Source: Bacteriovoracaceae bacterium | Lineage (GTDB): Bacteria; Bdellovibrionota; Bacteriovoracia; Bacteriovoracales; Bacteriovoracaceae | Reading direction: 5' to 3' | NCBI GenBank assembly: GCA_013141065.1 | Contig: JABFRR010000005.1 | Coordinates: 1-64,000 of the forward strand | DNA length: 64,000 bases | Shown here: positions 34,558 to 38,026 of the stretch, in pieces | Numbering within the stretch: the stretch's first letter is position 1 | How the letters are laid out: the number at the start of each line of letters is the position of its first letter | Notes under the pieces: generated by a model | Told to the model about the DNA's origin: nothing | Databases searched by the model: none | The model's input: only the letters and a program-made list of their open reading frames with translations | Translations under genes and position numbers: made by a program

Positions 34558-35308
34558 TCTTAGCCAGGCAATTTTCCCTTACTCAGTGAAATATGCATAT
34601 GAAGGACTTCATTATTATATTTTTGGTCTGATTCATCCGAACATCTCACAAAATCGGTCAAGGCTTCAATTTGTTTTTGAATAACTCCAAAATATCGAGG
34701 AGAGATTCTTCTGATCATCATTTTATTGATAAATTTTTTGAATTCAAACTGAGTTGAAAATTCAATATCCCATTGATCAAACAGGCGATAGATTTCTTCC
34801 AGCCCCTCATTAGTAGCTTTCGGGAAAATATACTCAGAGGATGTTGCTCTTAACGTATCTTCAATCGCCAAAGCAATTGAGCTCTCAATTAACGTTTCGA
34901 CTGATTTTTTTAGCTTGGGATAGGTTTTTAATTCTTTAAGTGTAATGGGGTATCTGGAAAGTGTTAAAATAAGAAATAAAAAATAATGCTCTTTTTTTTC
35001 ACTCAGGATACTTACTTGTTTTATCGTCAATTCTTTTTGGCCTTGATTGATTTTTTGATCATCAAGATTTGAGCTTAGACTTACGTGCGAAGAATTTATT
35101 TTTTCGTTAACTGTTTCTTCGAATAAATATTCAAAAGCCACAAATTGATCCGAGCAATAAGCCTTAATAAGCCTTTCAGCATAATGTCTTTCTACTATCT
35201 TTGAAATTTGATTAATTAGCTGCGAAGAAGGAAAAGAAACTCCTGATTCAATCTTTACATAATACTGATAATTGCACTCAAGCCCACATGATTTTAAATA
35301 ATTAAAGT

Positions 35309-35316
35309 AGCTTTTA
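35309..35316. repeat. Target-site duplication, left copy
   Basis: The 8-mer AGCTTTTA stands directly outside the left inverted repeat and is repeated exactly at 37073-37080. Eight bases is the duplication size of the IS66 family. Confidence 0.85.
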
Positions 35317-37072
35317 GAATCTATTCATTTTAATGGGGAAAATCGGTCAGGTTTAATAGTGCTAAGCCATCCAAATGAGATCACCGAGCGGCGGTAGTTC
35401 GTGGCGATTGTAAAATCGGTCTTTTAAATATTCACCAAAGCTAATTCCTATTTTTCGGCAAGTACTCATCAGACCTAAGAAAATATCTGATGCCATGGCC
35501 CCTTCTAAGCTTCTAAAATATCCTCTGATTTTTCTTTGAATAACTTTTTCTCTCATTGCCAATTCAGAAGTATTATTATGCAAAGGAATAGTTGGAAATT
35601 CCAAAACCAAAAGCAGCTCATCTTTTTTTGCTCTAGTTTTTTCCATCAATTGATTTAAAGCGAAGTAACAAGTCTTACCTAAAAAAATTAAATCAAATTC
35701 ATCACTCAATTCTTTCTTTTTCTTGTCATTGGGATTAATTTTATAAAGCTTTAGCTTTTCGTAATATTTCCAAAATGTTTCTCTAAAATCGGCAACAGCT
35801 TTTATAAAATCGGGATGACTTGGAGTTAACTTTTTATAATGGCGTTCTTCATGAATCAAACAAAGACCTAAGAATTCCAGGATGCCTTTAAACTGGGGGG
35901 CATCATCACAAATCAAAATTTTTGACCTCACTCCAAGAAAATTATCCCTAAATGCACCAATGGCACAACCTTCTTTTATGTGTTTTATCCACGAAGTAAT
36001 CTTTCCTCTCGCCCAGGGAGCATTTAGGATTTCATTGGTAAACTCATCTGGCCCATACAATCTATTTGATTGTAATTTTCTAAGTTCGCCAACGATTGCC
36101 TTATTGTTAACTTTATCATCAACATATTTGAGTGCAATTTCATTAATTGCAAATTTTAATTCTGTTCCGGCAAGTGCTCTCAATACAGCCTCTCTATTTT
36201 TTGAAAGACTTGTATAATAATCAGTAAAAAATTGATTACAAACTGCAATGCTGTAACCATTCTTTCCATTAAGTCTTGCACCGGTATCATCAATTTGAGA
36301 AAATCGCTTCGACTGATTCCAGCTTCCCTTACATTTTGTCGTTCTTCTTCAAATCTCTCATGACAAAGAATCATATTTGAAATTTCGCCGACAGATATTT
36401 TGACTTTAAGTCCGGTTAAAATTTTAAAAGAAGATTTTGTGTCATTCTTGCCTCGTAGTGAAACTGGATGACAAATGACCAAATACCAGGTCCGAAGATA
36501 CTACCTTTATATTCGGGAGGCAGTTGTCCTTCAAAAAACTTTTCCTAAAAATGGTGAATAGTATTTATGGATAATAAATTTGGTATTATTTAGATTAAAA
36601 TTTATGTCTTGAATTACGACATCTCTAGTACCTTTGTATTGTGCATCTTTTGGAAGATCTTTTTTCGACATCTTTTTCTTCCGTATTGTGGATTTCTATT
36701 TCTTTAGCATTTTTATTTTTTCCACGCCCGCCGTTCTTGCCGCCTTTTCTTTTATCATCACTATCTTTCTTGTCATCTTTGTTTTTAGCAATATCTGGCT
36801 TGCCTTTTTCGCCTTTGAGGCGATTGATTTCATCCTTGAGCTTTTGATTTTCTGAAGACAGTTCAGTTATTTTATTTTCTTGAGCATCAACTTTATTGAG
36901 AAGAGTTTTAATTGCACCAACTAGCATTTTGACCGGAAGCTTGGAAAATAGTTCGATGGTAAAGTTTTTGATATCGGCGAATGGCATTCACCAATACTTT
37001 CATATGGAAGACATAAGGCCAACTAACATGGCCTTACATTTAAAAAATTACCCCAGCGGGATGAATAGATTC
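35317..37072 (-). mobile_element. IS66-family-like insertion sequence, decayed
   Basis: The 1756-bp element is bounded by inverted repeats: GAATCTATTCAT at 35317-35328 and its complement at 37061-37072 (12 of 12), extended by TGGGG in both ends after a five-base gap. An 8-bp duplication AGCTTTTA flanks it. It carries one transposase gene on the minus strand, broken by several frameshifts, and none of the IS66 accessory genes. It sits inside an HTH regulator gene. Confidence 0.88.
35362..36987 (-). pseudogene. IS66-type transposase, multiply frameshifted
   Basis: The N-terminal piece (36987 to about 36660) has the leucine-zipper coiled coil and Lys-rich linker of TnpC (VDAQENKITELSSENQKLK). 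The next piece in another frame reads QYKGTRDVVIQDI, then after a shift LPPEYKGSIFGPGIW, then TGLKVKISVGEISNM, then, after another shift near 36305, IDDTGARLNGKNGYSIAVCN, which contains the first catalytic Asp, and the large C-terminal piece with the HNNTSELAMR motif and final Glu region. At least four frameshifts, mostly at A or T runs, make it inactive unless they are assembly errors. Confidence 0.85.
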
Positions 37073-37080
37073 AGCTTTTA
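37073..37080. repeat. Target-site duplication, right copy
   Basis: AGCTTTTA directly outside the right inverted repeat of the insertion sequence, identical to 35309-35316. Confidence 0.85.
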
Positions 37081-37232
37081 GATGTTCTAAATTTTGATTC
37101 TGTCCTGATCTTAACTAATTCCTGACTTATTTTGTTCACAATATCCCTGCCGGGCGATAATCGCTTATTAAAAGACTATATTCTAGCTCTTCGGTTGTGT
37201 ATGAAGTGAACATTAATTTTTACGAGGTTCTC

Positions 37233-37646
37233 ATGAAATCGACAATTTTTATGTTATTTACATTTTCCCTCATTATCCTTTCAAGTGGCGCCAGTGCCGG
37301 TAACGGTGTTGAGCGTGGAAGTGTAATGATTAAGACCTCTGGAGAAGAGACAATTATTAGTCCAGAAATTCTCAAGTTTTTGAGCAAAAAATTAGTTCGT
37401 TGTTCAAATACTAATAGCAGTGAGTATTTTGAAGTTTCTGAAGTCTCTATTCGAAGAGAAAAAATTGACCAAGGGATAATCGATCACTTTTATAAAATTA
37501 AATTAAATCATATCTCAGAAAATGCAGAATCTCTCAATAGAGTAACAGTAGAAATCTTAGACAGTGATTTTCATAATTGGCGCGATTATGAAGAAAAGCT
37601 TTCTTTAGAAATACTGAATGATCAAAATAAGCAATGTCTAAATTAG
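37233..37646 (+). CDS. Small exported protein, paralogue A
   Basis: The 137-residue protein starts at ATG 37233 with GAGG upstream and has a signal peptide ending SGASA-G. The mature part contains two cysteines (VRCS and the final QC) and the pattern EV...IDQGIIDHFYKIKL. The same pattern occurs in the next gene's product, so the two are paralogues with low identity. No known family. The stop is 23 bases before the ATG of the second gene, so they form an operon. Confidence 0.65.
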   Translation: MKSTIFMLFTFSLIILSSGASAGNGVERGSVMIKTSGEETIISPEILKFLSKKLVRCSNTNSSEYFEVSEVSIRREKIDQGIIDHFYKIKLNHISENAESLNRVTVEILDSDFHNWRDYEEKLSLEILNDQNKQCLN

Positions 37647-37669
37647 TACCTTTAACCAACGGAGTTTTT

Positions 37670-38026
37670 ATGAAAAAAATGCTATTGTTAACTTCTCTTT
37701 TATTGTCTCAAGTCTCTTTTGCAGCGATTTCTGAATCAAAACTAGAACTTCGTCACCAAGCTCTCATTGAAAAAGCAATCAATGCAAATTGTGGAAGCTT
37801 TAGAGAGCTTACTGAAGTGAATACTTCTGAAGTTGTTATTCAAATTGACCAAGGGATTAGAGACATTAAGTACACGACTATTTTAACTGGTCTTCAAAGA
37901 TTAGATCAAAATATTTTTGATCGTTATGAAATCGTTGTTGAGTCAGATTATGCAGATATGTATGACCACAGCGCTCAAGATTGGGGAGCTTACAACGTCA
38001 CTAAAGTTTCTTGCAGAATGGAATAA
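37670..38026 (+). CDS. Small exported protein, paralogue B
   Basis: The 118-residue protein starts at ATG 37670 with GGAG upstream and has a signal peptide ending VSFA-A. It shares with paralogue A the order Cys, EV, IDQGI.D..Y, then a SD and a Trp region (DWGAYNVTKVSC). Two cysteines (NANC and SC) probably form a disulphide. A rho-independent terminator follows its stop. Function unknown. Confidence 0.65.
   Translation: MKKMLLLTSLLLSQVSFAAISESKLELRHQALIEKAINANCGSFRELTEVNTSEVVIQIDQGIRDIKYTTILTGLQRLDQNIFDRYEIVVESDYADMYDHSAQDWGAYNVTKVSCRME

What the first reader, a model, noticed from the sequence alone, without database searches (positions are those of the whole stretch)
35309..37080. IS66-like element inserted in an HTH regulator, with perfect 8-bp duplication and restorable reading frame
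AGCTTTTA occurs at 35309-35316 and 37073-37080, directly outside 12-bp perfect inverted repeats. Removing the 1756-bp element and one duplicate joins GTG 37139 through 35308 to the stop at 34560 with no frame error, giving a 271-residue HTH protein. This shows a recent, precise knock-out of a regulator of the type Bdellovibrionota carry in large numbers, beside the TonB module.
Basis: seen in the sequence. Interest (0 to 1): 0.7.

Follow-up and report, generated by a model that had tools for sequence, protein, structure and literature searches.

The report
Jumping gene splits a bacterial regulator
A mobile DNA element has landed, cleanly and recently, inside a gene for a small DNA-binding control protein in a relative of predatory bacteria; the event is of an ordinary kind, but it sits in a genome unusually full of such elements.

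Summary
Confirmed. An IS66-like element (35317-37072, 1756 bp, 12-bp perfect inverted ends) is bracketed by the 8-mer AGCTTTTA. Closing the site gives 271 in-frame residues; seven uninterrupted close orthologues (49-57% identity) read straight across the junction. Profile libraries hardly see a helix-turn-helix, but a predicted fold supports one at residues 4-77, with the insertion in its second helix. The regulator's conserved neighbour is not the TonB module (0 of 7) but a divergent small secreted protein (7 of 7), usually with a second (6 of 7). The family is sparse (9 of 96 relatives), not numerous. This genome holds 12 full-ended copies of the element plus fragments; 13 congeners show only two short weak matches. 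One of 13 long copies keeps a 542-aa transposase frame; other differences are mostly homopolymer indels, probably assembly errors in repeats. Only 4 of 12 full copies have matching duplications; two pairs of copies share flanks (recombination or misjoined contigs). The genome has 85 DDE_Tnp_1 matches against 0-7 in 56 relatives. An ordinary IS insertion within an IS burst; loss of function and effect on the partner genes are inferred.

The parts
34560..35315 (-). 3' part of the interrupted regulator gene, 251 codons plus stop, open up to the element
   Evidence: contains a 193-aa ORF from GTG 35141
35309..35316 (.). target-site duplication, left copy AGCTTTTA
35317..37072 (-). IS66-like insertion sequence, 1756 bp, transposase on the minus strand (same direction as the regulator)
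   Evidence: sister copy L011 encodes an open 542-aa frame with DDE_Tnp_IS66
35317..35328 (+). terminal inverted repeat GAATCTATTCAT
37061..37072 (-). terminal inverted repeat GAATCTATTCAT (reverse strand)
35362..36183 (-). C-terminal transposase fragment, 273 aa, DDE_Tnp_IS66
36180..36482 (-). middle transposase fragment, 100-aa ORF, partly out of frame
36625..36987 (-). N-terminal transposase fragment, 120 aa
37073..37080 (.). target-site duplication, right copy AGCTTTTA
37073..37139 (-). 5' part of the regulator gene, GTG start, 22 codons plus one base (includes the duplication)
   Evidence: resembles the N-termini of orthologues
37152..37166 (.). candidate operator, imperfect palindrome around GCGATAATCGC between the divergent genes
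   Evidence: chosen after the fact, untested
37233..37646 (+). conserved divergent partner 1: small secreted protein, 137 aa (secretion judged by eye from the N-terminus)
37634..38026 (+). conserved divergent partner 2: small secreted protein, 130 aa, shares a D-Q-G stretch and cysteines with partner 1

Best explanation
An IS66-like element with a single transposase gene copied itself, from one of its many copies in this Bacteriovoracaceae-like genome, into codon 23 of a transcription regulator (N-terminal Cro/C1-type HTH, then a winged-helix-like part). It made an 8-bp target duplication and cut the HTH within its second helix. Shown: the site, the duplication, the restorable frame, the uninterrupted orthologues, and the many sister copies. 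Inferred: that the HTH is lost and the regulator is dead; that its normal job is to control itself and the divergent secreted proteins through a palindrome between them; and that those genes are now unregulated.
For: Exact 8-bp duplication outside 12-bp inverted ends, with the chance control. 271-codon closed site. The N-terminus of orthologue L066/L027 (ESFSQVLVRIRLTNGFKTSKSFFNYL) runs colinear with the closed site's NKISQELVKIRTESKFRTSKSYFNYL. Homologues without internal stops in 9 of 96 other genomes and 9 named loci (at least 4 of them appear to be contigs already found). Predicted helices 4-14, 20-29, 36-43, 51-60, 63-77, block pLDDT 85-94 over residues 1-70; local matches to C.AhdI and the DdrO HTH (TM by target 0.68 and 0.72). 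First partner gene beside the regulator in 7 of 7 close orthologues, second in 6 of 7; the same six of 97 genomes hold a close regulator and the partner. Element in 12 full-ended and 1 contig-end copies; 3 further copies have matching duplications.
Against: Pfam and NCBIfam give no HTH at E 0.1 for the window piece or for the three orthologues tested; weak HTH hits in 2-3 of 10 family members, best E 0.0059. Foldseek E-values for C.AhdI and DdrO are 0.48 and 0.60, and no PDB or viral match reaches 0.001. No expression data; a C-terminal 193-aa piece may be made from transposase read-through. The operator is an after-the-fact choice and is poor in L028 and L029. G012 has a weak partner match without a regulator match.
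Confidence: 0.93

Rival explanations
1. The regulator was already dispensable or unused when the element landed, so the insertion had no consequence.
For: Patchy distribution: close orthologues in only 3 of 13 congeners, so the gene is readily lost or gained.
Against: 251 downstream codons and 22 upstream codons have no stop or frameshift; the partner genes are open frames of normal length.
Confidence: 0.3
2. The insertion is an on/off switch: precise excision restores the gene in part of the population, as in phase variation by some insertion sequences.
For: Exact duplication and intact frame make precise reversal possible in principle.
Against: No read data; precise excision of such elements is rare (recalled general knowledge); one genome only.
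Confidence: 0.04
3. The element join is an assembly artefact: contigs were wrongly linked through a multi-copy repeat.
For: 8 of 12 full-ended copies lack a matching duplication and two pairs share flanks; homopolymer indels suggest a long-read assembly with errors in repeats.
Against: At this locus both flanks carry the same 8-mer and together form one gene colinear with orthologues and their conserved neighbours, which a random misjoin would not give; another high-copy IS keeps matching duplications in 9 of 10 full-length copies.
Confidence: 0.02

Closest known systems
IS66 family, single-transposase elements (the tnpC-only, ISBst12-like subgroup; name and definition recalled)
   Same: DDE_Tnp_IS66 domain, 8-bp target duplication (4 copies), terminal inverted repeats, one long transposase; tblastn relatives in 214 plasmid records, the best in Nostoc at 39% identity, most in rhizobia
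   Different: Ends begin GAATCTATTCAT, whereas the two other IS66 elements examined here begin GTAAG; NCBIfam equivalog score 91.5 against a cut-off of 180
Cro/C1 (XRE) type HTH regulators
   Same: Predicted five-helix N-terminal bundle like C.AhdI and DdrO
   Different: Not recognised by Pfam or NCBIfam at their cut-offs; a winged-helix-like part and an unassigned, low-confidence C-terminal part follow
Clade-specific IS expansions in other bacteria, such as IS5 in Pseudomonas syringae (PMC12858298) and IS in Shigella (PMC7373316); titles and starts of abstracts in the search listing only
   Same: Many near-identical copies of several IS families in one lineage and few in its relatives
   Different: No sign here of general gene decay in the one sample tested: 0 of 61 ABC_tran matches contain stops

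Membership tests
IS66 family | DDE_Tnp_IS66 transposase domain | tested here: met
   PF03050 41.4 bits against cut-off 23.1 on the open-frame sister copy; 32.6 on the window fragment
IS66 family | 8-bp target-site duplication | tested here: met
   window copy and three more (L014, L016, L019); the other 8 of 12 full-ended copies do not match
IS66 family | terminal repeats beginning GTAA (recalled; seen in two other IS66 elements here) | tested here: not met
   ends begin GAATC in all 12 full-ended copies; GTAAG in L093/L094 and L096/L097
IS66 family | NCBIfam transpos_IS66 equivalog cut-off | tested here: not met
   91.5 bits against 180; hence called IS66-like here
IS66 family | accessory tnpA and tnpB genes (absent in the tnpC-only subgroup; recalled) | tested here: not met
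   the 1759-bp copy L011 has one frame of 80 aa or more in the transposase direction, 542 aa, starting 86 bases from the end; on the other strand the window copy has only a 111-aa ORF inside the transposase region, not searched further
Cro/C1-type HTH regulators | five-helix HTH fold at the N-terminus | tested here: met
   AlphaFold2 model of orthologue L066 and Foldseek local matches, with E above 0.4 for the named HTH chains
Cro/C1-type HTH regulators | curated HTH profile match | tested here: not met
   none at 0.1 for the window piece or three orthologues; best 0.0059 among 10 members
Cro/C1-type HTH regulators | sequence-specific DNA binding | not testable with these tools
   needs protein

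The most novel reading that the evidence does not exclude
This genome is caught in an IS burst far above its family (85 DDE_Tnp_1 matches against 0-7 in each of 56 relatives, plus 18 stretches of the IS66-like element that congeners lack), and the IS66-like copies have also rearranged the chromosome by recombining with each other. One example is a radical-SAM gene cut at CTAGCTCT, whose halves now lie on two contigs. The regulator loss is one hit of that burst and leaves a conserved secreted gene set without its switch.
Probability: 0.4. Interest if true: 0.4.

Novelty: new member of a known kind. Interest (0 to 1): 0.22.

Why it matters
It is a natural disruption of a small, so far unnamed regulator whose likely target genes can be named from gene order, so its role can be tested. 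The larger point is the IS load: a genome from a family that includes predatory bacteria, caught in an IS burst, could show how such lineages lose regulation and rearrange. The insertion itself is routine.

Tried and rejected
A programmed frameshift for the transposase (two overlapping frames in the majority sequence of 13 copies) was considered and dropped: one copy has a single open frame of 542 aa, and related transposases have long single frames (545 aa in G013, 538 and 509 in G022, 570 in the second IS66 element of this genome).

A TonB connection was dropped: none of the window's TonB-module proteins is matched at E 1e-4 within about 5-9 kb of the 7 close orthologues.

Genome decay as the cause of the broken transposases was weighed: 16 substitutions against 75 indels, 57 of them in runs of four or more that make up 16% of the element, and 0 of 61 ABC_tran matches with stops, point rather to residual homopolymer errors in repeats, of the kind that PMC8812927 describes (start of abstract in the listing). 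That this assembly rests on long reads is my inference. A second IS with 13 matching loci has a milder indel excess (53 gap openings against 27 mismatches over 12 comparisons), but a 5-copy IS of 875 bp has no gaps, so true decay is not excluded.

The palindrome test (0 of 20000 random placements) overstates the case because the motif was picked from the same alignment; upstream of 7 distant relatives no such motif was found within 3 mismatches. The fold search of partner 1 gave no match at E 0.001 or better; the best, a lipoprotein and LptE chains at E about 0.02, do not settle its function. Two viral contigs matching the end motif were not followed; 17 specified bases in a collection of that size can match by chance.

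Full report
OBSERVATION. The 8-mer AGCTTTTA lies at 35309-35316 and 37073-37080, directly outside 12-bp perfect inverted ends GAATCTATTCAT. The element between is 1756 bp. Of 33 perfect 12-bp inverted pairs at 500-3000 bp in the window, only this one has an 8-bp direct repeat outside; 20 first-order Markov sequences gave none. The closed site reads 271 codons from GTG 37139 to the stop at 34560.

THE INTERRUPTED GENE. The piece downstream of the element is 251 open codons and was used as the query without joining. Of 97 genomes searched (this one included) 10 have a match: this genome once; five others at 49-57% identity over the whole piece, without internal stops (G009, G023, G010, G003, G025); four weaker (G046, G005, G029, G062). 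A scan of named genome contigs gave nine loci, at least four of which appear to be contigs already found; two further close orthologues are Bacteriovorax sp. BSW11_IV (L073, 55%) and MedPE-SWde (L074, 49%). G009, marked as the same genus as the window, matches the record Bacteriovoracaceae bacterium UBA6153 in contig length and position, so the window's organism is placed in that family by inference; its own name is not given. The orthologues' N-termini run colinear with the 22-codon upstream piece and through the junction. Two fragments on one G005 contig (L037, L038) were not examined.

IS IT AN HTH PROTEIN? Pfam and NCBIfam do not say so for the window piece and three orthologues at E 0.1; three HTH families appear weakly in 2-3 of 10 members, best E 0.0059. 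A profile search of PDB sequences gave three weak hits, two to RNA polymerase subunit F and one to a transcriptional regulator (E 0.0028 to 0.038). The AlphaFold2 model of L066 has five helices in residues 4-77, block pLDDT 85-94 over residues 1-70, then a winged-helix-like part around 111-181; overall pLDDT 72, pTM 0.42. Foldseek places the first part on C.AhdI (65 columns, rmsd 2.5, TM by target 0.68) and on the DdrO HTH (TM by target 0.72), with E 0.48 and 0.60; the best PDB match is an ArsR homologue at E 0.018. Several HTH_XRE phage models also appear, none at E 0.001. The insertion falls in codon 23, inside helix 20-29.

THE CONSERVED NEIGHBOURS. In 7 of 7 close orthologues the gene divergent from the regulator is a homologue of the secreted protein at 37233-37646; in 6 of 7 the next is a homologue of 37634-38026, and in G003 a second copy of the first takes its place. 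Of eight apparently distinct distant relatives (L032/L071, L033/L069, L034/L070, L035, L036, L067, L068, L072) none has them in the flank held, which is only 1.5 kb a side for L035. The proteins of the TonB module (window ORFs of 80 aa or more from 28000) are matched near 0 of 7. Among 97 genomes, six hold both a close regulator and partner 1, one (G012) a weak partner only, four a distant regulator only (Fisher p 1.4e-6, which does not correct for kinship). An imperfect palindrome around GCGATAATCGC (37152-37166) lies between the divergent genes and has counterparts at the aligned place in the seven orthologues: good in L066, L073 and L074, middling in L031 and L030 (as in the window), poor in L028 and L029. 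Partner 1 is predicted as a helix followed by a four-stranded sheet, with no firm fold match.

THE ELEMENT. The genome (3.58 Mb, 21 contigs, 92% complete) holds the window copy, 11 more full-ended copies, one cut at a contig end and five partial stretches, plus one 36-bp match likely due to chance; 40 of 118 first-look candidates were scored, so faint remnants may be missed. Thirteen congeners show nothing beyond stretches of 42 and 69 bases, with 24 candidates scored in each. Outside the genus, G029 has a short piece with 84% identity over 43 residues of the transposase, so a close relative of the element exists in the family. One of the 13 longest copies (L011, on the same contig at 191 kb) has an open 542-aa transposase frame with DDE_Tnp_IS66; the window copy has three pieces. 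Against L011 the other 12 show 16 substitutions and 75 indels, 57 in runs of four or more. A sample of single-copy genes looks clean: 0 of 61 ABC_tran matches contain a stop. The likeliest reading is leftover homopolymer errors in repeats (PMC8812927, start of abstract only); real decay remains possible.

REARRANGEMENT. Only 4 of 12 full-ended copies have matching 8-bp duplications. L013 and L018 carry each other's ends (CACTATAC and TAAATTTT), and the left end of L015 equals the right end of L017 (CTAGCTCT). The gene piece running into L015 matches residues 5-199, and the piece leaving L017 residues 203-413, of one gene that is open over 561 aa in G007; the second piece is a Radical_SAM domain, the first a B12-binding match below its cut-off. 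So one gene was hit and its halves now sit on contigs C10 and C17, by recombination between copies or by a misjoin. A second high-copy IS in the same assembly keeps matching duplications in 9 of 10 full-length copies (p 0.011 against 4 of 12), which argues against general misjoining but does not exclude it. A further copy, L016, splits recX. The flanks of the other unmatched copies were not paired.

IS LOAD. PF01609 gives 85 matches in this genome (76 over the family cut-off; some are two pieces of one element) against 0-7 in each of 56 relatives (which scored only 45 of this genome's 103 candidates but all of each relative's). Relatives assembled in 2 to 10 contigs, G003, G015, G020, G023 and G025, have 0; fragmented relatives may be undercounted. 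For comparison, Bacteriovorax sp. As-1 is reported with 13 IS elements (PMC12642874, passages). The three families examined are near-identical among their copies, a sign of recent spread.

VERDICT. A well-formed, apparently recent, ordinary IS insertion that very probably inactivates a sparse regulator. The wider IS burst is the more interesting fact and needs read data.

Noticed in passing
genome G000, all contigs: 85 DDE_Tnp_1 matches in this genome against 0-7 in 56 relatives: an IS burst.
   Followed up: partly
L015 (G000:C10:78200-81800) and L017 (G000:C17:142200-145800): Halves of one gene lie beside two different copies of the element and share the same 8-mer, so copies have recombined or contigs are misjoined.
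   Followed up: partly
L016 (G000:C6:608500-612000): Another copy of the element, with a matching 8-bp duplication, splits recX.
   Followed up: partly
window 37233-38026: Two small secreted proteins with a shared D-Q-G stretch and cysteines, conserved beside the regulator and of unknown function.
   Followed up: partly
L096 (G000:C11:25500-29000), L097 (G000:C6:294400-298000): A second IS66 element with GTAAG ends and a 570-aa open transposase frame in two near-identical copies; L097 appears to have a 9-bp duplication, L096 none.
   Followed up: no
L093 (G022:C2:8000-11800) and L094 (G022:C7:64000-67800): In another genome of the family, two identical IS66 copies also carry each other's flanking 8-mers (gtgaattt and ctttaaaa), the same exchanged-ends pattern as L013/L018.
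   Followed up: no
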